A stretch of DNA of 64,000 bases from contig OY821742.1 of the NCBI GenBank assembly GCA_963682055.1, positions 14,663,752-14,727,751 of the forward strand, in the 5' to 3' direction. Position numbers and translations under genes: made by a program. The notes beneath the pieces were generated by a model. The model searched no databases and was not told the DNA's origin. It worked only from the letters and a program-made list of their open reading frames with translations. Of the stretch, positions 9,995 to 35,065 are shown piece after piece. The DNA comes from Primula veris (Eukaryota > Streptophyta > Magnoliopsida > Ericales > Primulaceae). Every line of letters starts with the position of its first letter. Position 1 is the stretch's first letter.

Positions 9995-10548
9995 TGATAG
10001 AACATAAAAATTAGACCCGAATGTATCTATTCGGGTAGGAATCGACCCACCCATCATAGAGGGGTATCTAATGCTTAAATGGGCTATCTCAAGCCTTTCT
10101 TTGAGAATAGGATTGGATCTTACTAAAAGCCCAAGCCCACTTAAATAGGAACCCATGTTAGAAAAATCTCACAAGATAGAGACATTTGTCAACATCTTGG
10201 GAGGCATACTTGCCTATAAATAGCCAAGTATCCCCCCAAGACCATGGACCAGAAATCATACCTAAAAAATATAGAGAGAAGGAGAGAAAAGAAAAATACT
10301 AGTCAGGACGTATCACATCAAAAGCCTAACCGAGTCAGGCAGAAAGTCGAGCACAAAGAGAAGAGAAAGATCATCTTCCGGATCGAACAGCGGATCCGAG
10401 CATAAATATAGTGATATAAGTTGTAGTCCGAACAAGGGCGATTGCCGAATACTAATAAAGATCGAGAAGTGTTCATCGTTTATTGTCAATTCATGATTTA
10501 TTATTGTTGAAAAGCCTAACGCGACCGATCAAAGTTATGGCTTTGTCA
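9995..10548 (+). repeat. 5' LTR of gypsy/Tat element
   Basis: TGATAGAACATA...GCTTTGTCA, 554 bp. It contains a TATA box (GCCTATAAATAGCC, near 10213-10225) for the sense transcript and AATAAAG near 10455. Differences from the 3' LTR are seen at four positions (in AAAAATTAGACCCG, CATGTTAG and AAGATAGAG), all but one being transitions. Confidence 0.95.
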
Positions 10549-12242: not shown

Positions 12243-12277
12243 AGCCCGAGCCCAAGCCACTCCGAATCGCCTATCCA

Positions 12278-15200
12278 ATGCCGCCCAAACCACCTCAGCA
12301 AGGTCGTGGGCAAGAAAGGGAACGCCAGAGGCGTTATGAACCGGTCGAGTTGAAGTACACTTTCAACCTGTCTGCCGAAAATATCTTGAAGGATATTTGC
12401 AGAGAAATCTGGTACTCCCGACCCGAACCAATTCGTTCCTCCCCTGATTCCAGAGACACCAAACTCTTCTGCGCCTATCATGAGGATCACGGCCATGTCA
12501 CCGAGCATTGCCGACACATGCGGTGGAAGATGAACGCGTGGGGAGACGCGGGATTCCTCGACAAATTCATCAAAGGTGCTAGGGACAAAGGCAAGCAGCT
12601 AGTCATCGAGGGAACGGACAACCGACAAGGCAAGATGATCCACGTGGTCCACTTGTCAAGACCCAAAAGCACCGGGGGGGATCGATCCCAACAACGGCAG
12701 TTGGCCCACTTTGGGCAAGTAGCTAAAGCTTTGCAGGCGTCGACCTCAAAGCGACAATGCATGTCGCAGAAACACCCGCCCATTTCTTTCTCAGACCTTG
12801 ACGAAGAAGGGGTAATATATCCCCACGGGGACGCCATTAACCTCCGCGTCCAGATTGGTATCGATACGGTCAGCAGAGTGCTTGTTGACCAAGGAGCCTC
12901 TTGTGATATCATGTACAAAGAGCTCTTTGACAAGATGGAGCTCAAATTGCAAGATCTACAGCCCACTGACGTCACACTGATCGGGTTCATCTCTGAGACG
13001 ACTAAGCCGTTGGGAAAGATCGTCCTAAAGGTTACCACGGGATCCGTATCTGTTCCCGTGGAGTTCTTGGTGGTCAATGATAATTCCGACCACAATGCGA
13101 TCTTGGGCCGACCGTGGCTTCATGCTATGCGGGCGATACCTTCCACGTACCACCAGAAGGTGAAATACCCCAATGCCAAGGGTGAGATCGAGACAGCCCG
13201 AGGATGTCAGGAGGACTCAAGACGCTGTGAAGACATCACCGCTACGTTGAAGAGACAACTTGTAGTTGTCGAACAGCCCACAAGCGCAGGGAAGCTGATC
13301 AACCAAATAGCTCGAGCTGAGAGGGTTGTTGAAGAACAAGTCGGAGAAACACTCCGGAAGGTGTATATCCCGGATACGGATGAAGAGCACTACTTCCTCA
13401 TCGGAGATAGCCTTCCTAAAGAGGAATCCAAGGAGTTAGAGGCGTTCCTCTTCAGCAACATCGATAAGTTCGCTTGGAGCCCCAAAGACATGCCCGGTCT
13501 AGATCCGAAGATAGCATGCCATCATCTCAGCGTAAATGCCGAGTACAAGCCCATAGCTCAAAGGAGCCGGAAGGTGTCCGTCCAACACAGATCGGCTATA
13601 ATTGCTGAAGTCCGGAAGTTATTGGCAGCGGGAGCAATACGAGAAGTGTTCTACCCGAAGTGGCTGTCCAACCCGGTCGTCGTCCCAAAGAAGAACGGGA
13701 AGGAAAGAGTCTGTATAGACTTTACCAATCTAAATAAAGCCTGCCTTAGGGATCCATTCCCCCTACCAATGATTGATCAATTGGTGGACGCCACGGCTGG
13801 AGCAGAAAGAATGACTTTCCTCGACGCATACTCGGGATATCATCAAATCCCCCTTGCCCCCGAAGATCAAGAAAAGACTTCATTCATATCACCTCTGGGA
13901 AACTACTGCTATACGGTTATGCCGTTCGGCCTGCGAAACACCGGAGCGACATACCAAAGGATGATAACAAAGGTATGCCATAAGCATATAGGGAAGACAA
14001 TGGAGGTGTACATCGACGACATGGTCGTCAAGAGCGAAAAGGCCACTACACACCTCCAAGACATTAAAGACGTCTTCCAAACGCTGGGCGGGCACAAACT
14101 GAAGCTTAATGCTAGCAAATGTGCGTTCGGCATCAGCAAAGGGAAGTTTTTGGGGCACATGGTCAGCCAAAGAGGAATAGAGGCTAATCCCGACCAGATA
14201 ACGGCTCTGCAAAACCTAGCAGCACCCAAGAATAAGAAGCAGGTGCAAGAGCTCACGGGGATGATGGCCGCACTAAGCAGGTTCATCAGTCGATCTGCAG
14301 ATAAGGGATGACCATTTTTTGAGACCCTCAGGAAGGATAAGAAGTTCGTATGGGATCCGGCATGTGAAGAGTCATTCAACAACCTTAAGGAGTATCTCAG
14401 GACGCCGCCACTACTAGTAAGGCCGAACAAAGAGGATATTCTGGCCTGCTACCTAGCAGTTTCCACTACAGCTGTGAACGCAGTCCTCCTAAGAGAAGAG
14501 GGACGAGAGCAGTTTCCGATATACTTCGTCAGCAAGACTTTGGTCGAGGCCGAAACACGCTACCTACCGTTGGAAAAGTTGTGTTTGGTGTTGATCGTTG
14601 CTACCCGGAAACTACCACACTACTTCATAGCTCATAAATTCCAAGTCTACACGAAGTTCCACGTCAAGGAGTCCCTTCGGCGAACGGATATCAGTGGTCG
14701 GGTGGCGGCATGGGGGGTCGAACTATCCCAATTTCACATCGAATTCGCACCCCGACATGCCATAAAGGGACAAGTGTTGGCTGATTTCGTTGCGGAGTTC
14801 ACTGAAGGTTATGACGAGCCCCTGACCATTTCACCACAGTCGCACTGGGAGATACATGTCGACGGATCGTCCACCAAAGACGGATCGGGAGCGGGCATCG
14901 TCCTCAAGTCCAGAGAAGGGGCGATCATCGAGAAAAGCCTCAAGTTGGGCTTCCGAGCTACTAACAACGAGGCAGAATACGAAGCCATGATCAATGGCAT
15001 GCTCATCGCCCGATCCCTCGGATGCACCCACTTGATCGCTAGCTCTGACTCCATGCTAATCGTCAACCAGGCTACTGGAGAGTACCAAGCCAAGGACGAC
15101 CGAATGATCCTCTACCAAGAGAAAATCCAGAGCATAATGGTCAGTTTCGAACAATACGAACTAATAAGAATCAATCGCACCGAAAACGCACATGCCGATG

Positions 15201-16576
15201 CCTTAGCCACCCTAGCTTCGACATTAACGTTGGCCAACACTCGGACAATCACAGTGGAGCTTTTGGAAGCCCCGAGCATAACTAAAAGGATAGACCGAGT
15301 GACATCAGTACAATACAAGCTAGGATGGATGGACGACATGATTCGGTATTTGCGAAACGGGACGCTCCCGGCAGAAAAGATAAAGGCGTTGAAAATCACA
15401 CGAAAAGCCCCTCGTTTCTGGCTATCTGAGGACGACAAACTGTATAAATCTAGTTACCGAGGACCCCACCTTCTGTGCGTCCGGCCCGAACTGCAACAGC
15501 CTGTCTTGGAAGAGGTCCACGAAGGGTCTTGCGGAGCACACATCAAAGGGCGATCCCTAGCCAACAAGGCGATCACTCAAGGATATTGGTGGCCTTATAT
15601 CAAACGAGATGCAGATGTTTATGTCCAACAATGCGACAAGTGCCAAAGATTCGCCAAAATACCTCGTCTCCCATCATCCATGATGACCCCGGTATCGGCA
15701 CCATGGCCATTCGCACAATGGGCAATTGATATTGTCGGGAAACTTCCCAGAGCGCCCGGCAGCGTGGAGTATCTGATCGTAGCGACGGACTACTTTACCA
15801 AATGGGTAGAGGCTAAGCCTCTCCGGGAAATCAAAGCCAGCAACGTTAAGCAGTTCATCTGGGAGTACATCATCACCAGGTTCGGTATACCGTACGCTAT
15901 TGTCGCCGACAACGGAACCCAGTTCAGAGATGCCAATCTACAGCTGTGGTACGAGGAACTGGGTATCCGGAAGTTCTACTCGATGCCAACATATCCGCAA
16001 GGCAACGGACAAGCTGAAGTGTCAAACCGAACAATACTCGATGGCATCAAGACAACCCTTGAACAAGCAAAGGGGAGGTGGCCCGAGGGGATGCTCAACG
16101 TCTTATGGTCATGCTGAACTACTCCTAAAACGGGCACCAAGGAAACCCCGTTCAGCTTAGCATACGGCGTCGAAGCCGTCATACCAACAGAAATCGGGCT
16201 GTCCACACTCCGAACGACTTTAGTCGAGCAGGGGAATAATGAACAAAGAATGAGAGAGGAACTCGACATGCTAGACGAGAAACGAGAGATAGCAGCCCTT
16301 ACTCTAGCAAAATACCAACAAAGTGTAAAGCAAGCTTATGACAAAAGGGTGAAAGGGCCCAAGGAATTCAAGAAAGGAGAACTGGTATTGCGGCGAGTAA
16401 CAGTATACACCAGAAACGAGATACATGGCAAACTGGGCCCCACTTGAGAAGGCCCATACGAAATCGTCAAAAGAACAAGCCTGGCGACTTACAAGATCAA
16501 AAGCGTTCTATTCGGAAACAGCCGAGGGGAAAAGAATTCTTGGAACGTGACGAATCTTAAGAAGTACTTCATATGA
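12278..16576 (+). pseudogene. pol: pol of Tat element: protease, RT, RNase H, archaeal-type RNase H, integrase; three stops
   Basis: One frame (open from roughly 12150) encodes the full pol order. Seen: a Cys/His motif CAYHEDHGHVTEHC (12471-12512); protease core VLVDQGASCDIMY (about 12880), with Gln in place of the usual residue before Gly; RT motifs LDAYSGYHQIPL (near 13820), MPFGL and YIDDMVVKS (near 14010); RNase H from about 14470; a second RNase H of the archaeal type with HVDGSS (near 14855), NNEAEYEA, ASSDS and NAHADALA; an integrase zinc finger HEGSCGAH...CDKCQRF and DDE core WAIDIVG, ADNGTQF, GNGQAE. Stops TGA at 14309-14311, 16115-16117 and 16445-16447 lie in frame, consistent with CGA, CGA and TGG changed by transitions. 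The natural end is WNVTNLKKYFI at 16576. Confidence 0.92.
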
Positions 16577-17435
16577 ACGGGCTTCCATTACAGGTCACAA
16601 CGTACCTCTACTTTGTCATAACATTATTTTTTTAATTCAGAAGATATTTTGCTATTTATCAAGGATCAGGAATAATGAAAGTCCCCCAACGTAACCGGGG
16701 GCATAAGAAATTCCCAAAATGGCATGTAGCACTATTGCCTAGGAATACTGAAAGTCCCCCAACGTAATCGGGGGCATAAGAAATTCCCAAAATGGCATGT
16801 AGCACTATTGCCTAGGAATACTGAAAGTCTCCCAACGTAACCGGGGGCATAAGATATACCAAAATGGCATGTAGCACTATTGCCTAGGAATACTGAAAGT
16901 CCCCCAACGTAACCGGGGGCATAAGAAACTCCCAAAATGGCATGTAGCACTATTGCCTAGGAATACTGAAAGTCCCCCAACGTAACCGGGGGGATAAGAT
17001 ATCCCAAAATGGCATGTATCAGTATTGCCTAGGAATACTGAAAGTCCCCCAACGTAACCGGGGGCATAAGATATCCCAAAATGGCATGTAGCACTATTGC
17101 CTAGGAATACTGAAAGTCCCCCAACGTAACCGGGGGCATAAGATATCCCAAAATGGCATGTAGCACTATTGCCTATGAATACTGAAAGTCCCCCAACGTA
17201 ACCGGGGGCATAAGATATCCCAAAATGGCATGTAGCACTATTGCCTATGAATACTGAAAGTCCCCCAACGTAACCGGGGGCATGAGAAATTCCAAAACGG
17301 CATGTAGCACTATTGCCCAGGAATACTGAAAGTCCCCCAACGTAACCGGGGGCATATGAAATAATAGTTCAGTCCCACTTATGCAGGTACCAACTCTATC
17401 AAGAAAAAAGGGGGAAACAAGGGAAAATAATTGCT
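16577..17435 (+). repeat. Ten-copy 72/73-bp tandem array downstream of pol
   Basis: The unit begins GTCCCCCAACGTAACCGGGG and recurs at 16681, 16754, 16827, 16899, 16972, 17044, 17116, 17188, 17260 and 17332, i.e. periods of 72 or 73 bp. The rest of the unit is CATAAGATATCCCAAAATGG, then CATGTAGCACTATTGCCTAG, then GAATACTGAAA. Each unit contains CCCCC-AACGTAAC-CGGGGG, able to form a GC hairpin. The array is at the usual place for 3' untranslated tandem repeats in Tat/Ogre-type elements, a known source of satellites. Flanks 16577-16670 and 17360-17435 are ordinary spacer. Confidence 0.95.
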
Positions 17436-18385: not shown

Positions 18386-18529
18386 AGTGGCATGTGCCTA
18401 TATAAAAAAAAAATGGGAAAGAAAGGAAGAAATGAATATTCATCAAAAAATAAAGAAAGACAGGGAAGAAGAAAAACGAAGATTTTTATACAAGATACAA
18501 GTACAATGACAAAACAGGCTACTGCACCA

Positions 18530-19123: not shown

Positions 19124-19804
19124 CTGACAAGATTTTGTTTTCACATCCTTCAAAAGATGACGACCCACAAACAAGGAAATTAACTAGGGAAGCCAAACAG
19201 AAAGACAACAGAACACATATATTATCACTTCAAAAAAGAATCTGTCTAGTTACAAAAGCGGCCCACAACTCGGGTACCAAAAGACCCTACGCTAAGCTAC
19301 ACAAAAAATAACAGCAAAAATACAAGTAAAATGATCAAGGCTACACCTGAGGGGATGCGGGTGGGGGAGTCACATCAGCAGCAGGCCGAGGAGTGGACGG
19401 GGCCGAAACGAAATGGGAAAGGAGCGCTGTTGAAGTCGTCTGCCCTGGCAGCCGGGGGAGCTCCTCGTCCCGAAGATTTGCCCAATCTAAGGGTCTCGGC
19501 GGTGCACCTTGGGGACAGGGGTACACCAATTCCGACCACGCCCGATCCGACACGGGAGCCTTCGCGAAATTGAGAGCGCGAACATGAGCGCAAAAGACAG
19601 AAAAGTTAGCCATCATTGCTAACTTTGCCCGTTCATCTGCTTGCGCTACTTTCAGAGCCGCAACCTCCGATGTTCCGGCCTCCACGTCCTCCGCCATGAG
19701 CAAGTTATCGACCTCCAGTAGGTCGTATTTTTCGACCAGCTGCTCTTTCTCGGCCTCCAGCTTCTCAACTTCCTCAGTCAGGCGTAAGTTGTCTCCCACC
19801 AATT

Positions 19805-21058
19805 TGTTGGCCCCGGTGCGGCTAAACCTTAGAGGGGGGGTGAATAAGGTTTCTAGGCGTTTTTGCGGAATTAAAAATTCTAAGCAACTAACAACCCAAC
19901 TTATGCAATTCTAAGCTTAAGCGTTTAACAAAAGTTAATGAATTGCTAAATTACTAAACGCAAGCAATAAATACGCAAGAATATAAGTTGCGGAAAGTAA
20001 AAGCAAGGGAAGAAAATGACACCGTGATTTATAGAGGTTCGGCAAACGTGCCTACGTCCTCTTCTCGGTACTACCGAGTATTTCACTAAAATGTTTCTTC
20101 CGGATTTTACAAACCCTATCGAGCTCAATCGACGGATTGGCTCACCCTCTACCCGAGGTTCCTACTCTTGATACAAGTGCAAGAGAACACGACTACGAGT
20201 CTACGACTCCCCCTCAATTTATGAGTACCCGAATGAAAAACCTAGAGCTTTTAAGCTTCACTTGCTTACAAAGCCTCTACCCGTTCACTCGCTCACAATT
20301 GAGTTTATAAAACACTCGATACAAATTTTGTTACAAAAATGTAACTACACTCACTATTCTAATTGCTTCTTAAAAAGCTAATTGGTGAGTTGTTGATGAT
20401 GATCGAGCTTGAATCTCTTTCTCTTTTATTTTCCTCTTTCTCGAATATATATGCACCAAAATGGTGATATTAGGGTTTTAATGAGAGGTTGAAGGAAGTT
20501 GATTGGTATTGTGATTGGTTGATTTGGGAGAGAGATTTGGTTGGTATATATATGCCAAACAGTCTGTTTTTCTGTATATGACCGTTGGAAGTGGTTATGG
20601 CTATTTTTCAGTGGTTTAAGCTATTTCCCAGAAATTGCTGAAAAGCTGTTTTCGAAAACTGCAGAAAACGATCGGTCGTTCTCTACAGTCGATCGGTCGT
20701 TTTCAGAAAACGATCGGTCGTTTCTGAGTTTCGACCGGTCGTTTTTTCGACCTGCTCACTGGAATATTTTGGACCAAAAACGATCGGTCGTTTTTGTCCA
20801 GTCGATCGGTCGTCTGTAATTCTGGCAGTTTTTCGGTCTTCTCCGAAAGCTTGTAACTTCTTCGTTTTAGCTCCGATTTTGGTTCCGCTTGAACCTATGG
20901 CTTCGTTATCGAATGCTCTATCATTTAAAGACCTGAAATGTACATTTTCTCTTCTTTGGAAAAGACAAGCATTATATCAATGAAATAGAGAAATAGTAAA
21001 ATCATTAAAACATAATCAAGGTTATAATCAAAATCATTATTGAACTCTAAGTTCAACA
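19805..21058 (-). repeat. 3' LTR of nested gag-only copia element
   Basis: 1254 bp, on the minus strand starting TGTTGAACTTAGAGTTC and ending GGGGCCAACA. Its plus-strand interior holds six CGATCGGTCGT-type motifs at 20669-20815 (see the separate entry). ORFs of 60-92 codons inside occur identically in both LTRs and are not genes. Confidence 0.95.
20664..20815. repeat. Cluster of six CGATCGGTCGT motifs in the LTR
   Basis: Six motifs start near 20669, 20688, 20711, 20735 (as CGACCGGTCGT), 20779 and 20802, alternately preceded by AAAA and GT. Each core contains the palindrome CGATCG or ACCGGT. The same cluster recurs in the other LTR at about 24277-24428. A decayed version with GACCGATCG cores is in the solo LTR at 37575-37657. 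A role as LTR regulatory sites is inference. Confidence 0.7.
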
Positions 21059-21324
21059 ATCTCCCCCATTTTGATTATGACAAACTAATGATGATTTTAC
21101 AAGAAAAATATCTCCTCCATTTAAATAAAACGCATTTCCTCGAAATATATCATTTTTCTCCCCCTTTGGCATTATCAAAATGCAATCAAAAAATATGGGG
21201 TTATGTGAAGGGTTTTTAAAGAAAAACCAAAACATGAAAAATGTTATTATTAAGCATATACCCACACATATATGTAGACATAAAAGAGTAGAGTATACCG
21301 AATATGTGATGGTGAGTCCGCTCG

Positions 21325-23355
21325 CTAATGGCATTTGCATTGAGCGTTGCCGATGCCAAATAGGTGGTACCACTTGTTGGTATGCCTTCCACCTTTGTTG
21401 ATTAATGGCACTTCCTTCTTGATGGTGGAGTCGATCTTCTTGACTTCCACGACTTTTGCCGGTGTCGCCAACCACTTGTTGATTTTCTCCTTTTGGATGG
21501 AGATACCTACAACACAAGTTTTGTCCTTTGGTACCCAATTTCTTTTGGGTCCGACATTGTTAGTGGCTCGGGTCTTTACTACCCATTTCAAATCGCTTCT
21601 ACTAACATGAAAGCGATTTGGGCATTTAGAAGAAAAATGCTCATTTCTACTACAATGTATACAATGCATAGACTTTTTCGTAAAACGAGAACTATGCGAC
21701 TTTTTGTAGGAAGTTTTAGAAGTATGATGAGCGGTTTTGGTTTGAAAACCTAAACCTCTTCTATTATTACAAGAGTTCGGCAAAACTCTTGAAGTACTCC
21801 CTTGTGTAAAAACAACCTTTTGTATAGGCGGAATAGGAGTTGTAGACAAGCTAGGAGATTTGACAAAGCGGGTTGTGCTTGAGCCAATAGAGTTGGAATC
21901 GAAACCCACACCGCTTTTGTCATTAACATCTTTTTGACAACTCAAAATTTCGTCCAACACGGTTTTCCCTTTGGAAAACCTTGAGATTGTTAACTCGAGT
22001 TTTTCGACCGCAATGACAAGCTCATCGTTTTTATTTTTCAAAGAGTCATTTTCGGTTTTTAAAAACTCGTTTTTATCTTTTAAGTCTTCCTTTTCGTCAT
22101 CTATATCATGTAAAGAGAATGACGATGTCGGAATAGACTCATTTTCAATTTTATCTCTTTTCAAGGATCTTATTTCTTCATTGAGGGAAGAATTTATCCT
22201 TTTAAGAGAGTCGACCTTTTCAACAAGCTTAGGAAATTTTTTGGAATAAATATCGCACATATGAAGTAATTCATCATAAGATAGATCATTTACCTCATCG
22301 GCTTCACTTTCGCTTGAGTTGTCGCTTTCGCTTGAAGACGATTTGTTAGGCTCATTTTTGTCTTCCATGGCCATATAGCAACCAAGGTGAGCGACTTCAT
22401 CTTGGTCGGAGCTATCGCTAGAGCTTGAAGCGGATATCTTCTTCTTTCCTTTGCTCTTGCGATTCTTAAGGCAATCTCTCGCCATGTGTCCTTCCTTGCC
22501 ACATGTATAGCAAACAAAATCGTTAGAATAAATTGAATTATTTGACGATTTACCTTTATGTTTGCGTTGGTCCTTTAGCTTTAGGATTTCCTTGACGATT
22601 CGAATGATTTGCATTGAATTTTCGTCGTCATTGGATAGCTCATCGCTTTCGTCACAAGTTGTTCCTTTGAAAGCTATCTCCCTCTTTTTCGAGATTGGCT
22701 TGTGACTATTGAGGGTGATCTCGTGTGTAATGAGCGAACCCGTCAATGCATCAAGAGAGTATGTGTTCATGTCGTGCGCCTCTTGAATTGCGGTGACCTT
22801 TGGTTCCCATTCCTTCGGCAAGCTCCGAATCACCTTTGAGACCATTTCCTTACAAGACAAACACTTACCAAGAGATGTTAATCCATTAGTAATAGTTGTA
22901 AACCTAGCAAGCATATCGGAAATAGTTTCACCCTCGCTCATTTTAAAAAGTTCGTAGTCATGAACTAAAAGTTGGAGTTTGCAATCCTTAACTTGGTTAG
23001 TTCCCTCGTGCATAACTACTAACTTATCCCACATACCCTTAGCGGTTTTACAAGCGGAAATTTTGTTGTACTCGTTAGGAGAAACGGCACAAACAATAGT
23101 ATACATCGCTTTAGCATTAGTAGAGTAGGCTTCTAGTTGAGCATTATCTAGGTCCTCTACGGGGATTGGGTTTTCGCTATTTTCGTGTTTGGGAGCGGAA
23201 TATCCTACTTTAATAATCTTCCAAAGATTAACATTATAGCTTTGTAGGAACATGCTCATCCTATCCTTCCAATATGAATAATTTACACCATCAAAAAATG
23301 GTGGCGTATTGGGTGATGATGCAATGCCGGAAGTGAAATTAAGGAAGTTAGCCAT
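21325..23355 (-). CDS. gag: gag of nested copia element (676 aa, intact)
   Basis: ATG at 23355 (MANFLNFTSGIASSPNTPP), immediately downstream of the primer-binding site. N-terminal UBN2/DUF4219-type capsid: PFFDGVNYSYWKDRMSMFL, DKLVVMHEGTNQVKDCKLQ, FTTITNGLTSLGKCLS. A CX2CX4HX4C zinc knuckle (CYTCGKEGHMARDC) lies near residue 280, followed by Ser/Asp-rich and coiled-coil stretches (about residues 370-460). A second, variant knuckle CIHCSRNEHFSSKC precedes GPKRNWVPK, the sequence that in SIRE-type copia polyproteins lies just before protease. The frame ends (GNAQCKCH) before any protease. The ORF is uninterrupted, in keeping with recent activity. Gag would form particles into which RT from a related autonomous element must be supplied. 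Confidence 0.92.
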   Translation of the reverse strand: MANFLNFTSGIASSPNTPPFFDGVNYSYWKDRMSMFLQSYNVNLWKIIKVGYSAPKHENSENPIPVEDLDNAQLEAYSTNAKAMYTIVCAVSPNEYNKISACKTAKGMWDKLVVMHEGTNQVKDCKLQLLVHDYELFKMSEGETISDMLARFTTITNGLTSLGKCLSCKEMVSKVIRSLPKEWEPKVTAIQEAHDMNTYSLDALTGSLITHEITLNSHKPISKKREIAFKGTTCDESDELSNDDENSMQIIRIVKEILKLKDQRKHKGKSSNNSIYSNDFVCYTCGKEGHMARDCLKNRKSKGKKKISASSSSDSSDQDEVAHLGCYMAMEDKNEPNKSSSSESDNSSESEADEVNDLSYDELLHMCDIYSKKFPKLVEKVDSLKRINSSLNEEIRSLKRDKIENESIPTSSFSLHDIDDEKEDLKDKNEFLKTENDSLKNKNDELVIAVEKLELTISRFSKGKTVLDEILSCQKDVNDKSGVGFDSNSIGSSTTRFVKSPSLSTTPIPPIQKVVFTQGSTSRVLPNSCNNRRGLGFQTKTAHHTSKTSYKKSHSSRFTKKSMHCIHCSRNEHFSSKCPNRFHVSRSDLKWVVKTRATNNVGPKRNWVPKDKTCVVGISIQKEKINKWLATPAKVVEVKKIDSTIKKEVPLINKGGRHTNKWYHLFGIGNAQCKCH

Positions 23356-23399
23356 CGGGATCTTAACTCTAGAATCGTTAGATTCTTATATGCAAGAGC

Positions 23400-23417
23400 C
23401 TTGGCTCTGATACCAAT
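23400..23417 (-). promoter_or_regulatory. Primer-binding site (tRNA-iMet type) of nested copia element
   Basis: The minus strand reads TGGTATCAGAGC two to three bases inside the 5' LTR, the standard plant copia primer site complementary to the 3' end of initiator tRNA-Met. Confidence 0.95.
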
Positions 23418-24671
23418 TGTTGGCCCCGGTGCGGCTAAACCTTAGAGGGGGGGTGAATAAGGTTTCTAGGCGTTTTTGCGGAATTAAAAATTCTAAGCAA
23501 CTAACAACCCAACTTATGCAATTCTAAGCTTAAGCGTTTAACAAAAGTTAATGAATTGCTAAATTACTAAACGCAAGCAATAAATACGCAAGAATATAAG
23601 TTGCGGAAAGTAAAAGTAAGGGAAGAAAATGACACCGTGATTTATAGAGGTTCGGCAAACGTGCCTACGTCCTCTTCTCGGTACTACCGAGTATTTCACT
23701 AAAATGTTTCTTCCGGATTTTACAAACCCTATCGAGCTCAATCGACGGATTGGCTCACCCTCTACCCGAGGTTCCTACTCTTGATACAAGTGCAAGAGAA
23801 CACGACTACGAGTCTACGACTCCCCCTCAATTTATGAGTACCCGAATGAAAAACCTAGAGCTTTTAAGCTTCACTTGCTTACAAAGCCTCTACCCGTTCA
23901 CTCGCTCACAATTGAGTTTATAAAACACTCGATACAAATTTTGTTACAAAAATGTAACTACACTCACTATTCTAATTGCTTCTTAAAAAGCTAATTGGTG
24001 AGTTGTTGATGATGATCGAGCTTGAATCTCTTTCTCTTTTATTTTCCTCTTTCTCGAATATATATGCACCAAAATGGTGATATTAGGGTTTTAATGAGAG
24101 GTTGAAGGAAGTTGATTGGTATTGTGATTGGTTGATTTGGGAGAGAGATTTGGTTGGTATATATATGCCAAACAGTCTGTTTTTCTGTATATGACCGTTG
24201 GAAGTGGTTATGGCTATTTTTCAGTGGTTTAAGCTATTTCCCAGAAATTGCTGAAAAGCTGTTTTCGAAAACTGCAGAAAACGATCGGTCGTTCTCTACA
24301 GTCGATCGGTCGTTTTCAGAAAACGATCGGTCGTTTCTGAGTTTCGACCGGTCGTTTTTTCGACCTGCTCACTGGAATATTTTGGACCAAAAACGATCGG
24401 TCGTTTTTGTCCAGTCGATCGGTCGTCTGTAATTCTGGCAGTTTTTCGGTCTTCTCCGAAAGCTTGTAACTTCTTCGTTTTAGCTCCGATTTTGGTTCCG
24501 CTTGAACCTATGGCTTCGTTATCGAATGCTCTATCATTTAAAGACCTGAAATGTACATTTTCTCTTCTTTGGAAAAGACAAGCATTATATCAATGAAATA
24601 GAGAAATAGTAAAATCATTAAAACATAATCAAGGTTATAATCAAAATCATTATTGAACTCTAAGTTCAACA
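23418..24671 (-). repeat. 5' LTR of nested gag-only copia element
   Basis: 1254 bp, near identical to 19805-21058. It supplies the promoter for the gag transcript. TATATATGCC (about 24159-24168) and TATATATGCACC (about 24059-24070) are AT-rich TATA-like stretches. The motif cluster is repeated at 24277-24428. Confidence 0.95.
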
Positions 24672-26715
24672 CAATTTATCGTAATCCGAGGACAACTTCG
24701 CCATCTTGACTCTCTCCTCGGCCGCTATTTTATTTTCGGCCACCAGCTTCTCTTTCTCCGCCTCTAGCTCGGAGACCAACTTCAACTGCTGAGCTTTATC
24801 CTCAGCCATTACTTTGTTTTCGGCCTCTAATGCCGACAGCTGATCCCTTAACACCGCAATATCCACGAAAACATGCATTTAGAAACATCAGACAACAGCT
24901 AAAAGAAGAGCGTCACCACCTATGTAATCAAATGCGAACGCAACATACCCGAAGCGCATCAGCGCTGGCCTTCTCTATAACTGACTTCACATGCAGAGCG
25001 GCTATTTTCTCTGCATCCTTAACGACGAGGGGCTCAAGAGCAGTATACCCCATCCTCAAGACTCGGGGTTGCTCCAACAATTCACCCCCACAACGCTCAA
25101 TGTAATGAGTCATTGCAGCCCCGTCTATCAACACCTTTTCAGGTCCCTCGGGAACCTCCTCCTCACCACCAATCGCAACCTCCACGGCAGTTTCCTTGCC
25201 GGCTTCCACCTCCTCTTCTTCCCTCACCTCCTCTGAAGGACCAGTCTCAGGGGCCCTATGCTCGATCACCTCTACGGTACGGATGGGCGAGTAAACAGGA
25301 AGATCTATCGGATCCTCGGTATGAGTAGGCGAGATGACAGGCAGGGTCATCGTCTCCTCGCCCATGTTCACCAAGAGGTTCATATGACTGAATACGTTAT
25401 CAATCGACCCCTGAAACACAATAATACCCATAGACCGGGCAAGAGCAAGGGTAACCAATGAAGAAGTCAATAACTGAAACAAGATAACGTATAAAGAAAG
25501 GAACACTAGAGTTCAAAGTCGACTATTCACACAAACAAACATACACGTACCTCACCATGCGCAGCAGCCTCCTCGGTAGTACCAGCATCCGCAACCTCTT
25601 CATTCACCGAGGTCTCTGACCCCTTAGCCTTCTTCAAGGTCCCAACAGCATCATCTGATGCTCGGCGTTTAGGACGAGCAAGCTTTTTCCCTCCCCGTGA
25701 AGCGCTTCTCGCCCTGACAATTTTGAGGAAGTCCTCCTCAGTCGCCTTGGGAATCTCGGGCGCAGGATTGCCCTTGGTCACCGGCCCCGTAGGATAACCT
25801 AAGAGCATGGGAGCAGTACGGCTCGCCGGATCCTTTGCCGGTCTCGGCCCCCACCAGTTCCAAAGTGCCAAGAGAGCTTAGACATTGGGAGCACCTAGGT
25901 CGGGACTATCCGGAGCCGTCGTAGTAGGTCCGGGAATCAGGTGTTCGGCACAGCACCATTCTCCGGAAGCAATCACAATGCCAAGATTGTGCTCCTTATT
26001 CGTATCAGGAAGACTGAGGACAAGCCGCGAGAATAAGCGCAATGACTTCATATACGAGCTCCGACGCTCAAAACTCAAACTATATACCCCGAACACATCT
26101 TTCAGTTCGATTTTTATCCCAGACAACTCCGATAACCTCTGGATACCGATCAAAGTACGGTAACCATTCAAAGCCAGTTGGGCCGGCGCTATCTGGACGG
26201 CCTCAAAGAACGAGGCCACCCATTCGGTGAACGGAAGTCTAAGACCCCCGGTAAAGAACGTCGAGGAACGTACGGCCACCTCACCGGCCGGAACAAATCC
26301 CATAACCTCCTCGTCGGAGACAGGCAGCCGAATGCGTATGTTGTCAGGTATCCCGGCGAGCTTCTTGAAATCCTCTTCCACAAACGGGCCAACTTGGGCC
26401 CGGCATTGGGTCAGAATGTCCTATCCCAACATCATAAAAATTTCAATCAATATCCTAAACAAAAACACAACAATACGCGAACCCCCCCCCCCCCCCCAAT
26501 TTACTAGAAACCCTAAGATTTTCTACTCAACCAACAAAACTCCTATACATGACGAAAAACCACCAATCACCAACCCAGATACATATATATAGGCAAACAC
26601 GACCGTATCTCATACAGCACATACATAACAGCAACAACCAATCAAATACAGGCCCTAAACACAGCCATATACAGAATACCAAGCAAAATACGAAAACACT
26701 TACAGTCATAGTCAT

Positions 26716-27440
26716 GAGCAAGCAGTAGATCGAAGCAGCAAATCTATCAGTTATCCGGTGAAACCCTAGATCGAGACGCAAGTTATTTTTGGCGGGAAGA
26801 GAAAACCCTAGAGAGAGACAATAAGAGATATTTTTTTTCAGCAAATTATGGGATAAAAAACAAAAGGGATTACTTAGCACAGTTAAAAGAAGTGGAGCCA
26901 CAGAAAGAATAAAATATTAACCGTCCTTTCGTGTGACAGAGGTTTACCTTTTTTCCAACCATAGAAAAGTCCACAACCGCTGCTCTTTTCGACAGATAAA
27001 CGCTCCAGATCTTGCCACGTCACATAGTTTATCCCACTAACCAAGGCAGTTCACATCATTACACCTATATAAACGGCCCGTGGACCCTACCACGAAAAGC
27101 TTCTACCATACGCTACCAGTATTACCAACCGAGGACACCCTCCGAGTAAGTTCCTCGACGTCAAAACCGTTTCTTACCGAAATGGTACACCGAACAAGGT
27201 GAACGGCGACCGTTCCTAGCCCGACGACATTTAAGCGTCCAGTCTAACAACGCTCTCCGGGGGGATAACATTGGTGTACCTTGCTCGGTATCCAATGATG
27301 TCAGCACGAAGGCAAAGCAAATAACACAGCGAAGACGCAAAGACAAATAAAATAGACATGATCAAATTGCAAAACACAAGTTTTATTCATCCACAAAGGG
27401 GGATACAAACAAACAACAGGAAAAGAAAAGTTTACAAGAA
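26716..27440 (-). promoter_or_regulatory. 5' leader and promoter space of the antisense gene
   Basis: The minus strand upstream of ATG 26715 has a plant-leader-like tract (CTCTCTCTAGGGTTTTCTCTTCCCGCC, complement of about 26788-26815). Further up, CCTATATAAACGG at about 27065-27077 is TATA-like on the plus strand but weaker (TATATAGG) on the minus strand, so the start point is unclear. 27080-27440 holds no ORF worth reporting and contains a GAATAAAAC signal for the next antisense gene. Confidence 0.4.
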
Positions 27441-27455
27441 AATACAACGCCCATC

Positions 27456-27815
27456 CTACTTCTTCGAACTACCCCCCATATCGGCATCCTTCTTCGCCAA
27501 GAGCTCCCCCAGACGCTCTTTTTCCCTAACCAAATGGGAAATGCCAATCTCCACTTGTTTTAAAGCATAAGATTGAGACTTGCACTTCTGCTCGGCAACA
27601 AAACGAGCAGCGCTCTCCTCCTTCCAGTACTGTTTGAACCGCCTCATTTCGGTCTGAGCACACTTAAGATCGTGTTTCAACCTTGATATCTCGATGTCTT
27701 TTAGTTGAAGCGGCGTCAATTCCTCCTTCCCATAACCAGGGGGACGGGGTAGCAAGAAGGTGTGCTCTTCAACTACGGTTTTCTTTTTGGAAGCAGACCT
27801 GGTGATGGGAGCCAT
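27456..27815 (-). CDS. Short antisense coiled-coil protein 5 (119 aa)
   Basis: ATG at 27815: MAPITRSASKKKTVVEEHTF. A basic N-terminus is followed by a helical region (LTPLQLKDIEISRLKHDLK, FKQYWKEESAARFVAEQKC, SHLVREKERLGELLAKK) and a Gly/Ser/Lys tail. A TATA box (CTTTATAAAT on the minus strand, about 27891-27900) lies about 80 bp upstream, followed by a CT-rich leader. GAATAAAAC (minus strand, near 27376) can serve as polyadenylation signal. No known domain is recognised. The layout is the same as in four neighbours. Confidence 0.6.
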   Translation of the reverse strand: MAPITRSASKKKTVVEEHTFLLPRPPGYGKEELTPLQLKDIEISRLKHDLKCAQTEMRRFKQYWKEESAARFVAEQKCKSQSYALKQVEIGISHLVREKERLGELLAKKDADMGGSSKK

Positions 27816-28070
27816 CTCAGTTAAACACTAATAGGGAAAGGAGAGAGAGAAAGGAAGAATGGATACTGAAACACAAAGACAATAGGGAGCATTTATAAAG
27901 AATCAAAGGGCACAAAGTACGAAAAGGCGCCAGGAACGAGGCGTTGCAAACGGTTCAATATACAAAGAGGAATGGAATACGAAAAGGTACAACTTATCAA
28001 AAACAAAAAAATTTATTACTTGATACAGATTACAAAACGGGAAATACATCAGAAAATAAGCCCAATCTAA

Positions 28071-28550
28071 CTAAGGATCAATGGGCGAAAAAACCGAACT
28101 GCCAGACCAAGAGAAAGACATCCGAGCTGCGCAATTTAACCGAGCTTGGTAGGAATCATTCATGACGACCAAGCATTCATTCTCCGAGGAGAGGTCGTTG
28201 TTCTCCTCGATAAGAACCTTAATGCGCCCCTCAAGACGAGCATTTCTAACCATCATGCTAGCTATGCCTTGAGGGGAGTTATCAAATTCACCCTGAGCAT
28301 GGTCCCAAATCTCCTCGGCATCATACCATGAGCGGGCTAAATGATTTCTCTGTAGCAACAACCTGTCGAGCTGACGACTCAAAGCCGAGATCTCAGTCCA
28401 CTTTATGGTTTCCTCGGGATGAGGGACGGACCGACTCAAGGCAAAGGTACCATACTCCTTCTCAAGTCTGGCCATCCGATGACGGACCCGAGATACCTCA
28501 GCATCTAAGCCCTTCATCTGAGCATGATATCTCACCACGAGCTCAGACAT
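28071..28550 (-). CDS. Short antisense coiled-coil protein 4 (159 aa)
   Basis: ATG at 28550: MSELVVRYHAQMKGLDAEVS. Almost entirely helical with heptad Leu/Met (VSRVRHRMARLEKEYG, ISALSRQLDRLLLQRNHLAR, VRNARLEGRIKVLIEENNDL). The minus strand has CTATAAATACTCG at about 28645-28656, about 100 bp upstream, then a long CT-rich leader. TAATAAATT on the minus strand (near 28015) is a possible polyadenylation signal. Function unknown; related in style, not clearly in sequence, to its neighbours. Confidence 0.6.
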   Translation of the reverse strand: MSELVVRYHAQMKGLDAEVSRVRHRMARLEKEYGTFALSRSVPHPEETIKWTEISALSRQLDRLLLQRNHLARSWYDAEEIWDHAQGEFDNSPQGIASMMVRNARLEGRIKVLIEENNDLSSENECLVVMNDSYQARLNCAARMSFSWSGSSVFSPIDP

Positions 28551-28559
28551 TATGAAAAG

Positions 28560-29450
28560 TTGTGTTTAGATAGAAGGAGATGGGAGATGAAAGAGAAGAA
28601 GAAAACAATAGGAGTGTGAGAAATGATATTACTAAGGAAAAGACGAGTATTTATAGAACAAAGATAGTATGGCATTGACTGACAAGTGTTGGGGAACGTG
28701 CATGTTCGCCTGACAAACACTTGGGAACATGCGTATTATCTGACACAGCATGGGAGCCTGCATCATATACAGGCCCCTCAAACGTCACTCGGCTGCAGTA
28801 CGGCAGAAAATAAAAATTCAAGATATTCAAAGATCCACATTCCAACAAAACGACAAACCACAAATGCAAGGTAAAGAAAAGTGCAATATACAGGGGCAAA
28901 GAAAATTTTCATTAATAAAGATGAGATACATCGCTGTTCATTACATCACGGGACTACATCGAAATGAAAAACTATTACATCATAAAAGGAGACCTATTAC
29001 ATTCGAGAAAAAATCTATTACATCCAAAGGCTACATAGCCAAAGAAGATCGACTATATCAGCAAACCCAGCTAACAGGAGCGAGCAGACAACGATGGGGA
29101 AGAGGAAGAAGAGAATGAAGACGAACATAAAAAAGAAGTGAAAAGCAAGAAGAGAAAAATGAAAAATGACAAAAACCCTAGAAGTAACAAAAAACCCTTA
29201 GGATCACAGGGTTGATTGTTACATCGTAGTGGTGCAGAAGAAGAGAAAAAGGAAAAAAGAAAAAGAAAAGAACAAAGCATTAAACAAAAGAGGAAGAGCA
29301 AGAAATGAAGAAAACTGACAAATAAAAAGGAAGTCAAAGAAACAAAACAAAAAAGAAGAAAAAGAAAAAGAGTGATGGGAGAGAAGATGAAGAAAAAGAA
29401 AGAAGCGCAGAAGAAAAAAAAATATAAAAAGAAGAGAAGAAAGGGGGAAG
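28560..29450. other. Spacer between antisense genes 4 and 3
   Basis: It holds the TATA-like box and leader of gene 4 (28560-28660), two copies of a short motif around 28685-28740 (GACAAGTGTTGGGGAACGTG and GACAAACACTTGGGAACATG) and a long A/G-rich tract (about 29090-29450) that is CT-rich on the minus strand. No convincing coding sequence; the plus-strand frame 28750-29118 is low complexity. Confidence 0.5.
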
Positions 29451-29451
29451 G

Positions 29452-29745
29452 TTAGGGGAAAGTCGATCGGTATCGATGAGAGGGCCCGGCAGAGACATTC
29501 CTGTCCCGAAGTGTCGGGTTTCCCCTCAACACCTCATTCTCTTCGACTAGAGCCTGACGAGCACGTCGGCAATAATCCAGTTCGGATCTTAGCCAAGTCA
29601 ATTCCCGAACCATCTCGGTATGGTGATAACGCATCACCTTCAACTCTTCCTCAGCATCCTTCAACAGCTTTAGTGCATGGCCATAAGAGGCCTCGAAAGC
29701 CTCCACTTGCAAGACCAAGGCAGATTTGGTAGAAGGACCAGCCAT
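29452..29745 (-). CDS. Short antisense coiled-coil protein 3 (97 aa)
   Basis: Start at 29745 (MAGPSTKSALVLQVEAFEAS). The frame is open 24 codons further up, but a TATA box (CTATAAATACCCTC on the minus strand, about 29827-29838) lies in that part of the spacer, so the internal ATG is preferred. The helical body GHALKLLKDAEEELKVMRYH, LTWLRSELDYCRRARQALVEE ends in a short Arg/Ser tail. No known domain. Confidence 0.6.
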   Translation of the reverse strand: MAGPSTKSALVLQVEAFEASYGHALKLLKDAEEELKVMRYHHTEMVRELTWLRSELDYCRRARQALVEENEVLRGNPTLRDRNVSAGPSHRYRSTFP

Positions 29746-30304
29746 TTTGAGAAAATTATAAGGCAAAATTTTATATATGGCAACAAGATATATGGGAGAG
29801 ATTATGAAAAAACCCATATCTTAAGAGGGTATTTATAGAACAGTTAAAGATGGTTTAATGTGGGGAATGGCAACCGTTCATCAAAAGGCGCTGGAAAACA
29901 TGGGTAATGGGAAAGGTGCGTCTGTTGAGAAGAAACGCTTGGGTTCAAGCCAGTATTTAAAGAGGGTAAATCTCCATAAAAGCTTCTACACGTGTCAATT
30001 ACGCCAGCATTTAAAGGAGGAAGTTGAACAGTGTCAAGATTTAAAAGATAAGATTTGTGCACAAGTCTCAAGGAATCCCATTAGTTCCCAGATACAAAGA
30101 CTCAAAAGATTCGGTGGATAAGGTCAAGCACAAGACCCAAGAAAAATCATTAATGAAGCCACAAGCATGCGCCGTCAAAATTAAATGCATTGGGAAAATA
30201 AATCATACAAGAACGAGAAAAAGAAGAGTTTTCATTAATCAAGGGGAACTTCATTACAAGATACTTCTCGACAAAAAGACATTACATCACAAAGAAAAAT
30301 AGGA

Positions 30305-30643
30305 TTATTTTGTAGAAGTACCAGCTTTTTCACCGGGCTTCCTCTTCGACCGAGCATACACTTCCTCAAGGGCTAATTTGTAAGCCCTCTTGGAAGCAAT
30401 TTGCCTGTCTCTGGAGGCCTCAAGCTCTTTGATCCGAGCACGAGCATGAATACTGTCGAGCAAAGACCTCTGGTGCTCCTTCTCCATGGCGTCCAATCGT
30501 TCGTCTAGTTCGACGGCCCGACGAGCTTCCACCGACAACCGGGCAACCCTCTTCTCGAGATAACGCACTTTCTTAACTTCCTCTTCAAGATGAGCAACAT
30601 ATTCAGGAAGGTTATCACCATTAGTTTCATAAGGAGAAGTCAT
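30305..30643 (-). CDS. Short antisense coiled-coil protein 2 (112 aa), paralogue of protein 1
   Basis: Start chosen at MTSPYETNGDNLPEYVAHLE because it aligns with MASPNSSTGDNSSDYVAYLE of the neighbour at 30936-31247, and because the TATA box (CTATAAAAAGGGGG on the minus strand, about 30689-30702) lies about 55 bp upstream, inside the longer open frame. Shared C-terminal motif: KRAYKLALEEVYARSKRKPG versus KRAYKLAFKELHDRTKPGSE. The middle is a coiled coil (LEKRVARLSVEARRAVELDE). The pair results from duplication within the element. Confidence 0.65.
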   Translation of the reverse strand: MTSPYETNGDNLPEYVAHLEEEVKKVRYLEKRVARLSVEARRAVELDERLDAMEKEHQRSLLDSIHARARIKELEASRDRQIASKRAYKLALEEVYARSKRKPGEKAGTSTK

Positions 30644-30935
30644 TTGTTCGTTAATAAGGAATGAATTACACAAAGAAGACAATGCAGCCCCCTTTTTATA
30701 GGGAAAAATGAGGGACATTAATGATCGTCTCGAAGAAAGAACAACCCTCATGAACTTCCCAAGTGCATTCAAGGCTAACTAACAACAATTTCCAAGGTCC
30801 AATTGAGTCATCCAATGAGGTATTAAGGAAACAAACACACAGGAATAAAAGTAGGAAATATTTTATTAATATTTTCAATAATTCGGTTACAACTTGGAGA
30901 TAATGCCTAATTACAAAGAAATCACAAAAGACTAA

Positions 30936-31247
30936 TTATTCCGAGGAAGAGCTTGCTTCAGCGCCCTCCGACCCCGGCTTGGTCCGATCATGCAGCTCCT
31001 TGAAAGCGAGCTTATAGGCCCTCTTTGCTGCCTTTTCCTTAGCCAGGGAAGCCTCGAGCCTCTTTATACGTTCAAAGGCCCAATCCAGGTCGGCCATCGT
31101 CAAGTGATGAGCCGCGTCCATATCAGACAACCTTTTGGTCATGTCCGCCAGCTTCCTTTTCATAACGCGAGCCTTCTTAACTTCATTCTCCAAGTAAGCG
31201 ACATAATCCGAAGAATTATCTCCAGTAGAACTATTGGGAGAAGCCAT
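30936..31247 (-). CDS. Short antisense coiled-coil protein 1 (103 aa), paralogue of protein 2
   Basis: ATG at 31247. MASPNSSTGDNSSDYVAYLE is followed by ENEVKKARVMKRKLADMTKR and a second helix, then KAAKRAYKLAFKEL and an acidic/serine tail (EGAEASSSSE). The TATA-like CTATAAAGAGGG on the minus strand (about 31295-31306) is about 50-60 bp upstream. AATAAAATA on the minus strand near 30860 is a possible polyadenylation signal. It is the gene nearest the 3' LTR of the gypsy element and is transcribed towards pol. Confidence 0.65.
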   Translation of the reverse strand: MASPNSSTGDNSSDYVAYLENEVKKARVMKRKLADMTKRLSDMDAAHHLTMADLDWAFERIKRLEASLAKEKAAKRAYKLAFKELHDRTKPGSEGAEASSSSE

Positions 31248-31543
31248 TAAATCACAAGATGGTGATGGAATAAGTAATTGTGGGAATGGTATTCCCTCTT
31301 TATAGTAAATGGATCTTTGGAAAGGTCAAGGGTTTCCTCGAATAAAGATACTGAGGGTCATATCAAAGTCAAATAGCAAGTTTGCAAGTTTCCAAGACAG
31401 TAAGTGGGTCCCAAGGAACAGTTATAAAAAGGGGCATTTGTCGAATGAAACATAAGGGAGCAGCTAAACCAAAGTCATCTCTTCGACAGACCAATCATGA
31501 CTCCCTCGACATGGAAACCATGCCGAGGAAGTCAGGGAGCACT

Positions 31544-34774: not shown

Positions 34775-35065
34775 TAGATTTAGATAGATGTTTTGTTTTG
34801 AAAAACGCTTTAAATCAATATTTGATTAATGCAAATCTTTACGGTTTCACGACGGAAACATAAATATGCGTCTTTTTTTTCATGAGATATATAATGATAT
34901 GTTTTGAATTTTTAAATTTTACCATAACTTCGAAAACATGCCATTATACATCTCGGAAAAAAAATAAAATAAGACGCATATTTGTGTTCCCGTCGTGAAA
35001 CCATGAAGATTTGCATTAACCAAATACTGATTTGAAGCATTTTTACAAAAAAATATCTAAATTTG
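34775..35065. mobile_element. Foldback/MULE-like MITE with ~100-bp inverted repeats
   Basis: The left arm (AATATTTGATTAATGCAAAT, TTTCACGACGGAAACATAAA, TATGCGTCTT) is matched in reverse complement by the right arm (AAGACGCATATTTGTGTTCC, CGTCGTGAAACCATGAAGAT, TTGCATTAACCAAATACTGA). The arms are about 100 bp each around a ~90-bp centre. No coding sequence. Long inverted repeats suggest a Mutator-like or foldback element; target duplication not resolved. Confidence 0.7.

What the first reader, a model, noticed from the sequence alone, without database searches (positions are those of the whole stretch)
26704..31247. Tandem set of self-contained antisense coiled-coil genes inside a Tat retrotransposon
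Five consecutive minus-strand ORFs (27456, 28071, 29452, 30305 and 30936 as left ends) each have a TATA-like box (CTATAAAT or CTATAAA(A/G)) about 50-105 bp before the ATG and an AATAAA-like signal after or near the stop. Each encodes a short protein that is almost all coiled coil. At least two are clear paralogues (YVAHLEEEVKK / YVAYLENEVKK; KRAYKLALEE / KRAYKLAFKE). An antisense ORF in Tat elements is known; a battery of separately promoted short coiled-coil genes next to it is not something I recognise. They may bind the long coiled-coil antisense protein or Gag, acting as co-factors or dominant inhibitors.
Basis: partly seen in the sequence, partly recalled or inferred. Interest (0 to 1): 0.75.

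Follow-up and report, generated by a model that had tools for sequence, protein, structure and literature searches.

The report
Five antisense mini-genes in a retrotransposon
A plant jumping gene carries, on the strand opposite its usual genes, a row of five small genes that each appear to have their own promoter and that evolution has kept intact as proteins, so they probably do something for the element, although what they do is not yet known.

Summary
Window 9995-32097 is a Tat/Retand-type Ty3/gypsy element with both LTRs (554 bp, 4 mismatches) and TSD GTATG. Between TRP28 (weak PF04195 match) and the 3' LTR lie five minus-strand ORFs; shuffles give 0.39 such ORFs, and 0 of 2000 reach five. 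Two starts are corrected: o3 to 29745, o4 to 30643. The five minus-strand [CT]TATAAA sites of the region lie 57-105 nt before the five ATGs.

The host genome holds many copies. Of 30 fetched (chosen by o5), 24 carry all five ORFs in one order and strand. Median dN/dS among diverged copies is 0.17-0.26 per ORF, frame-specific, and indels avoid the ORFs. TATA boxes persist in 23/26 to 30/30 copies. o1-o4 have 75-87% identical proteins in public contigs.

So these are real, selected antisense genes, each with its own TATA. Antisense accessory genes are known (TRP28, Grande gene23); a row of five short ones is new to me, and the main survey read counted ORFs of at least 600 bp unless they carried TRP28. 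Only o4/o5 are clear paralogues. Function is inferred; no transcripts were available.

The parts
9995..10548 (+). 5' LTR (TG...CA), preceded by TSD GTATG
10866..12242 (+). gag ORF (PF03732)
   Evidence: E=1.6e-10
12107..16577 (+). pol: protease, RT, RNase H, second (RVT_3) RNase H, integrase; the frame runs on to about 16577 with in-frame stops in this copy (14309-14311, 16115-16117, and one further on)
   Evidence: domains scanned only to 16114
16668..17433 (.). 72-73 bp tandem repeat array
19804..24671 (.). nested copia-type insertion (LTRs about 1.26 kb, 99.8% identical), inside the antisense coding stretch
25878..26420 (-). Transposase_28 (TRP28)-like exon of the long antisense gene
   Evidence: PF04195 E=0.005-0.008, below the Pfam cut-off
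27456..27815 (-). o1, 119 aa antisense gene
27892..27897 (-). TATAAA of o1, 82 nt before the ATG
   Evidence: kept in 26 of 26 copies
27382..27387 (-). AATAAA after o1
   Evidence: 17 of 19 copies with AATAAA or AATGAA
28071..28550 (-). o2, 159 aa antisense gene
28650..28655 (-). TATAAA of o2, 105 nt before the ATG
   Evidence: 23 of 26
28012..28017 (-). AATAAA after o2
   Evidence: only 6 of 25 copies
29452..29745 (-). o3, 97 aa antisense gene (start corrected from 29817)
29832..29837 (-). TATAAA of o3, 92 nt before the corrected ATG
   Evidence: 26 of 26
30305..30643 (-). o4, 112 aa antisense gene (start corrected from 30751), paralogue of o5
30695..30700 (-). TATAAA of o4, 57 nt before the corrected ATG
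   Evidence: 28 of 29
30231..30255 (-). two AATGAA signals after o4
   Evidence: 24 of 24 copies with at least one AATAAA or AATGAA
30936..31247 (-). o5, 103 aa antisense gene
31299..31304 (-). TATAAA of o5, 57 nt before the ATG
   Evidence: 30 of 30
30862..30867 (-). AATAAA after o5
   Evidence: 29 of 30 with AATAAA or AATGAA
31544..32097 (+). 3' LTR, followed by TSD GTATG

Best explanation
The five ORFs are genuine element-borne accessory genes. Each looks like a compact RNA polymerase II unit (TATA box, short leader, intronless ORF, in three or four cases with a nearby poly(A) signal) read antisense to gag-pol, so it could be expressed without the 5' LTR. Each makes a small, largely helical protein kept by purifying selection at the protein level (selection shown; helical nature and transcription inferred). 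The likely role (inferred) is that of non-enzymatic accessory or regulatory proteins that assemble through helical contacts with themselves, the TRP28 protein, Gag or chromatin factors and help the element's expression, particle assembly or nuclear steps. Separate TATA boxes and cassette-like exchange between subfamilies suggest that the genes can be regulated and replaced one by one.
For: More ORFs than chance, with codon-position GC like pol. dN/dS medians over diverged pairs: o1 0.21 (17 sequences with the window, 56 pairs), o2 0.26 (26, 202), o3 0.17 (25, 185), o4 0.23 (29, 228), o5 0.17 (31, 242). The pattern is frame-specific: frame 0 gives 0.20-0.32 pooled, the other two forward frames 0.91-2.13; the one reverse frame that mirrors the low value (0.28-0.39) shares third positions and has 5-9 stops in every window ORF. 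In 12 diverged copies (11 for o3 and for the o2-o1 spacer) indel events per kb are 0, 1.2, 0.3, 2.3 and 5.6 in o5, o4, o3, o2 and o1, against 9.1-20.7 in the four spacers. Start codons are kept in all copies examined (26/26, 26/26, 26/26, 29/29, 30/30). TATA boxes are kept in 26/26, 23/26, 26/26, 28/29 and 30/30, with those TATA columns 96-100% identical to the window against 82-89% for the whole 130 nt upstream. 24 of 30 copies hold all five in one order and strand. o1-o4 relatives at 75-87% identity end at the same residue and carry at most one one-residue gap; in P0005 the body is 84 of 97 identical but the stretch before the corrected start only 9 of 24.
Against: No RNA or protein evidence was available. 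o5 anchored the choice of copies, so o5's own conservation is biased upward; o1-o4 are not directly selected on, but gapped o1 alignments (seven) were dropped from its dN/dS. Near pairs show weaker constraint (0.35-0.57), as expected after insertion. Some copies carry stops (3, 1, 3, 5 and 0 for o1-o5). o3 lacks a nearby poly(A) signal and o2's is poorly kept. The helical or assembly role rests on composition and heptad tests alone. o5 had no hit in the protein database. No gag-pol dN/dS was computed for comparison.
Confidence: 0.66

Rival explanations
1. The ORFs are exons or pieces of one long antisense transcript (for instance of the TRP28 gene), not separate genes.
For: The TRP28-like gene here looks multi-exonic (my reading, not tested), and all five ORFs lie upstream of it on the same strand.
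Against: Each ORF has its own conserved ATG and its own conserved TATA. A stop codon stands at the aligned end in 16/19 (o1), 25/25 (o2), 25/26 (o3), 23/24 (o4) and 30/30 (o5) copies. The three AATAAA on this strand of the region fall just after ORFs. No profile similarity to TRP28 pieces above probability 30.
Confidence: 0.1
2. The selected product is antisense RNA (dsRNA or siRNA tuning of the element), and the ORFs are incidental.
For: Antisense transcription can feed small RNAs; PMC7264820 discusses this for antisense ORFs (read).
Against: Substitutions concentrate at third codon positions in all five ORFs (0.52-0.60 of differences) and indels avoid the ORFs but not the spacers. Selection on RNA alone would not do this.
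Confidence: 0.07
3. The five genes are captured host genes carried as passengers.
For: Short intronless ORFs with complete promoters resemble small host genes, and plant elements do capture genes.
Against: No Pfam family passes its cut-off for any of the five. Copies are numerous and diverged (o5: 2675 first-look candidates, 150 scored, 83-100% identity) and keep order and constraint across subfamilies. But a genome search for host single-copy relatives did not complete beyond o5.
Confidence: 0.1
4. Chance open frames in a young, undecayed element (low stop density from the T-rich minus strand).
For: LTRs differ at 4 of 554 sites, so the copy is young. T-rich spacers do give long low-complexity open frames in some copies.
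Against: 0 of 2000 shuffles; dN/dS 0.17-0.26 at dS up to about 0.7; frame specificity; indel exclusion. This copy's pol, by contrast, already has in-frame stops.
Confidence: 0.02

Closest known systems
Retand-lineage antisense ORFs with TRP28 (PF04195); Vicient 2025, PMC11963269 (abstract, Background, part 1 of 2 of the structural-variability results, Discussion and found passages read)
   Same: Tat/Retand-type element; long pol-3'LTR region with tandem repeats; antisense ORFs between pol and the 3' LTR; a TRP28-like antisense exon is present.
   Different: That survey counted ORFs of at least 600 bp (shorter ones only if they carry TRP28; 104 antisense ORFs in 63 clusters), so none of these five (294-480 bp) would be scored. 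Here pol-3'LTR is about 10 kb net of the nested insertion against its 2.9-6.6 kb, and five short genes with their own TATA boxes precede TRP28.
Maize Grande gene23 (known to me through PMC7264820, first two of three parts read; the primary paper was not read)
   Same: An antisense accessory gene in the 3' internal region, transcribed from its own upstream promoter.
   Different: One gene there, five short ones here. The Grande protein is reported to be nuclear; localisation is untested here. Sequence relation was not tested.
Antisense genes of HTLV-type retroviruses (HBZ, APH-2), compared with plant antisense ORFs in PMC11963269
   Same: Works-like comparison only: a protein made from the antisense strand.
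   Different: HTLV has an antisense promoter inside the 3' LTR (PMC7264820); here each unit has an internal TATA. No sequence comparison was made; o2's weak bZIP_1 score (E=0.0048) is below the Pfam cut-off.

Membership tests
Tat/Retand lineage of Ty3/gypsy (criteria from PMC6317226 passages) | extra RNase H (aRH) between RH and integrase | tested here: met
   RT_RNaseH 48-141, RVT_3 183-301, Integrase_H2C2 391-447, rve 466-561 in one ORF; that RVT_3 stands for aRH is recalled
Tat/Retand lineage of Ty3/gypsy (criteria from PMC6317226 passages) | antisense ORF with Transposase_28 (PF04195) between pol and 3' LTR (PMC11963269) | tested here: inconclusive
   right place and strand, E=0.005-0.008, 17 bits against a cut-off of 26.2
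Tat/Retand lineage of Ty3/gypsy (criteria from PMC6317226 passages) | long pol-3'LTR region with antisense ORFs, often tandem repeats (PMC11963269) | tested here: met
Tat/Retand lineage of Ty3/gypsy (criteria from PMC6317226 passages) | RT phylogenetic placement in Retand rather than Ogre | not tested
   no reference RT set was at hand
[quoted passage not shown]
   24 of 30 copies chosen by o5 hold all five
Conserved antisense aORF (aORF-3R) | protein-level constraint | tested here: met
Conserved antisense aORF (aORF-3R) | antisense transcription from own promoter | not testable with these tools
   only conserved TATA boxes; no RNA data
Coiled-coil proteins | heptad periodicity above shuffled sequence | tested here: met
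   P 0.008, 0.002, 0.000, 0.042, 0.000 for o1-o5 (500 shuffles each), home-made score, best 35-residue stretch only
Coiled-coil proteins | predicted or solved coiled-coil structure | not testable with these tools
   structure prediction switched off; no PDB relative of o2 at E 0.1

The most novel reading that the evidence does not exclude
The element carries a multi-gene accessory module: at least six antisense genes (TRP28 plus five short ones), each short one separately promoted and selected, which modulate the element or its host's silencing much as complex retroviruses use accessory genes, with genes exchanged as cassettes between subfamilies. Such small-gene batteries would be widespread in Retand-type elements but unseen because surveys use a 600-bp ORF floor.
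Probability: 0.3. Interest if true: 0.8.

Novelty: new variant of a known kind. Interest (0 to 1): 0.62.

Why it matters
Antisense ORFs of plant Tat elements have been described for years without a known role, mostly as one or two long ORFs per element. Here selection can be read on five extra short genes at once, each with its own conserved TATA box. That makes the question of what the antisense strand does for these abundant elements testable gene by gene, and shows that ORF-length cut-offs can hide coding capacity. It also means that some unknown small proteins and minus-strand transcripts in plant annotations may be transposon accessory genes.

Tried and rejected
Considered and rejected: chance frames, a single spliced antisense gene, RNA-only selection, all five being paralogues (o4/o5: z=24.8, hhalign probability 99.5; of the other nine ORF pairs and the pairs with seven antisense pieces and gag, none was reported above probability 30; o2/o5 had z=3.1, within its shuffles), coding on the opposite strand (the mirrored reverse frame has 5-9 stops in each window ORF; the plus-strand frame that is open through o5 has no constraint, pooled ratio 1.24), and a sixth conserved gene in the T-rich o3-o2 spacer (ten open frames of six copies translated and looked at by eye: the ones in that tract are low-complexity or unlike each other).

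Led nowhere: o5 in the protein database (0 of 5 candidates at E 0.01); viral contigs for o2 and o4 (1 and 17 pattern matches, none confirmed); PDB with the o2 profile; Pfam (only weak scores below cut-offs); tRNA scan. Literature searches: in the listings and the sections I read I saw no report of a row of short separately promoted antisense genes in a plant LTR element. The library lacks most subscription papers, so this does not show absence from print.

Rows dropped before counts: 8 gapped alignments (seven o1, one o2), tblastn hits covering under 90% of an ORF, and o4/o5 cross-hits under 60% identity. In one search the 12 diverged copies include L059, whose o1 and o2 stretches align to unrelated sequence and raise the o1/o2 figures. 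One search failed with a script error and was redone. dN/dS pairs share copies and are not independent; the method is Nei-Gojobori with Jukes-Cantor, without a tree. The 130-nt poly(A) counts take AATAAA or AATGAA and have no chance expectation. The o3 upstream-ATG question stays open.


Full report
What was checked. They sit inside an LTR retrotransposon with both ends, window 9995-32097: LTRs of 554 bp with 4 mismatches, TG...CA ends and a TSD GTATG on both sides. The plus strand carries gag (PF03732) and pol with protease, RT, RNase H, a second RNase H (RVT_3) and integrase, in that order. The second RNase H between RNase H and integrase fits the Ogre/Retand part of the Tat clade by PMC6317226 (passages), and an antisense Transposase_28-like exon (25878-26420, weak: E=0.005, below the Pfam cut-off) points to Retand. 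RT phylogeny was not done. A 4.9-kb copia-type element is nested at 19804-24671, inside the antisense coding stretch. The pol frame runs on to about 16577 with in-frame stops in this copy at 14309-14311, 16115-16117 and once more, while all five antisense ORFs are open. Net of the nested element the retrotransposon is 17.2 kb and the stretch from the pol end to the 3' LTR about 10 kb, against 2.9-6.6 kb in a survey of recently active Retand elements (PMC11963269).

More than chance. Dinucleotide shuffles of 26900-31540 give 0.39 minus-strand ORFs of at least 95 aa on average and never five in 2000. Codon-position GC (high, low, high) resembles that of pol, less so in o4. The region has exactly five minus-strand [CT]TATAAA sites, one 57-105 nt before each ATG once two starts are corrected; with all seven TATAAA sites placed at random in the non-coding part, P = 5e-5. 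The corrected ATGs are kept in all copies examined (26, 26, 26, 29 and 30 of the same numbers for o1-o5). The upstream o3 ATG is also kept in 25 of 26, so a longer o3 is not excluded; but between the window and P0005 that extension has 9 of 24 residues alike against 84 of 97 in the body.

Sister copies. The host genome (436.5 Mb, 34 contigs; the window is C3:14663752-14727751) gave 2675 first-look candidates for o5, of which 150 were scored: 83-100% identity, and three rows with an internal stop. I fetched 20 near copies (L031-L050) and 10 more diverged ones (L051-L060), all chosen by their o5. Of these 30, 24 have all five ORFs detectable, in the same order and strand in 24 of 24, and 21 have at least 95%-length alignments of all five. 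The six others lack o3 (L034, L047), o1 (L043), o1-o4 (L041), o1-o3 (L049) or o1-o2 (L059).

Selection. Median dN/dS for pairs with dS 0.15-1.5 is 0.21 (o1), 0.26 (o2), 0.17 (o3), 0.23 (o4) and 0.17 (o5); near pairs give 0.35-0.57 pooled, as expected when copies decay after insertion. Internal stops occur in 3 of 17, 1 of 26, 3 of 25, 5 of 29 and 0 of 31 aligned sequences, the window included. In the two other forward frames the pooled ratio is 0.91-2.13. On the reverse strand one frame shares third positions and mirrors the low value (0.28-0.39), so the ratio alone does not name the strand; but that frame has 5-9 stops in every window ORF, while the ORF frame has none. 0.52-0.60 of all differences are at third positions. 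In 12 diverged copies (11 for o3 and the o2-o1 spacer) indel events per kb are 0-5.6 in ORFs and 9.1-20.7 in spacers. o5 was the bait, so its own figures are biased; o1-o4 were not. Protein-level selection is therefore shown for o1-o4 and likely for o5. No gag-pol yardstick was computed.

Promoters and ends. [CT]TATAAA is kept in 26/26, 23/26, 26/26, 28/29 and 30/30 copies for o1-o5. The TATA columns are 96-100% identical to the window against 82-89% for the whole 130 nt (o3's second TATA-like site at -30 is 88%). AATAAA or AATGAA within 130 nt of the stop: 17/19, 6/25, 0/26, 24/24, 29/30. o3 is followed by a long T-rich tract without a conserved frame that I could see, so its 3' end is unexplained.

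Relatives elsewhere. In 5.8 billion predicted proteins o2 has two relatives (79% and 75%). A query alignment of o1, o3 and o4 found one for each (76%, 87%, 86%). All five relatives end at the same residue; P0003 has one extra residue, P0001 is listed from five residues further in, and P0005 with the longer start. o5 alone found none. Their organisms are unnamed. The best of the own-genome copies fetched match them at 83-94%, so they may come from the same or a related plant.

What they are. No Pfam family passes its cut-off, and there is no PDB relative for o2. Heptad periodicity beats shuffles for all five (P up to 0.042), but conserved segments unlike coiled coil exist (the o1 N-terminus, the o3 and o2 C-termini). 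Only o4 and o5 are clearly homologous (hhalign probability 99.5; no other pair among the five ORFs, the antisense pieces and gag reported above 30). So the set looks like five genes from four families, not one amplified family. Divergence differs along the same pair of copies: L042 and L047 differ by 2-4% from the window from the o5 upstream stretch to o4 but by 10-23% beyond it, and L040 has o2 at 3% between spacers at 23% and 15%. This suggests exchange between subfamilies, which template switching would explain (inference).

How it probably works. Shown: five antisense ORFs under purifying selection as proteins, each with a conserved TATA box. Inferred: separate transcription, helical assembly, and a role as accessory factors. 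The published parallels are Retand TRP28 ORFs and Grande gene23, which is reported to be transcribed from its own upstream promoter and to make a nuclear protein (PMC7264820, first two of three parts read; primary papers not read). The survey in PMC11963269 counted ORFs of at least 600 bp, with shorter ones only if they carried TRP28, so short genes like these (294-480 bp) would not be scored. I therefore file it as a new variant of a known kind. Whether other plants' elements carry such rows is the open point, and the whole-genome search tool did not answer for o2 or P0004.

Noticed in passing
window 19804-24671: A young copia-type element (gag with zinc knuckle found, no pol domain in the one ORF scanned; LTRs about 1.26 kb, 99.8% identical) is nested inside the antisense coding stretch of this copy.
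   Followed up: partly
window 17750-18397 and 18530-19183 (minus strand): Two further long antisense open frames between the tandem repeats and the nested element. There is no [CT]TATAAA there, but a G-TATAAA lies 105 nt before an ATG at 18385, and AG acceptor-like sequence stands at 18398, so 17750-18385 may be another short gene or an exon.
   Followed up: partly
window 16668-17433: Array of 72-73 bp tandem repeats just after pol, as often seen in Retand-type elements.
   Followed up: no
L040, L042, L047: Mosaic divergence along the antisense gene row: stretches 2-4% different from the window next to stretches 10-23% different, pointing to recombination between subfamilies.
   Followed up: partly
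window 29071-29451 and copies L031, L051, L054, L056, L058: Long T/C-rich minus-strand tract after o3 that is open in some frames by composition alone; it carries a short conserved stretch but no conserved ORF that I could see.
   Followed up: partly
window 30990-31250 (plus strand): An 86-aa plus-strand frame lies opposite o5, and 86-aa frames appear on that strand in some copies too; the frame shows no constraint (pooled ratio 1.24).
   Followed up: yes
window 34792-35053: Inverted repeat of 88-nt arms, 86% complementary, outside the element.
   Followed up: no
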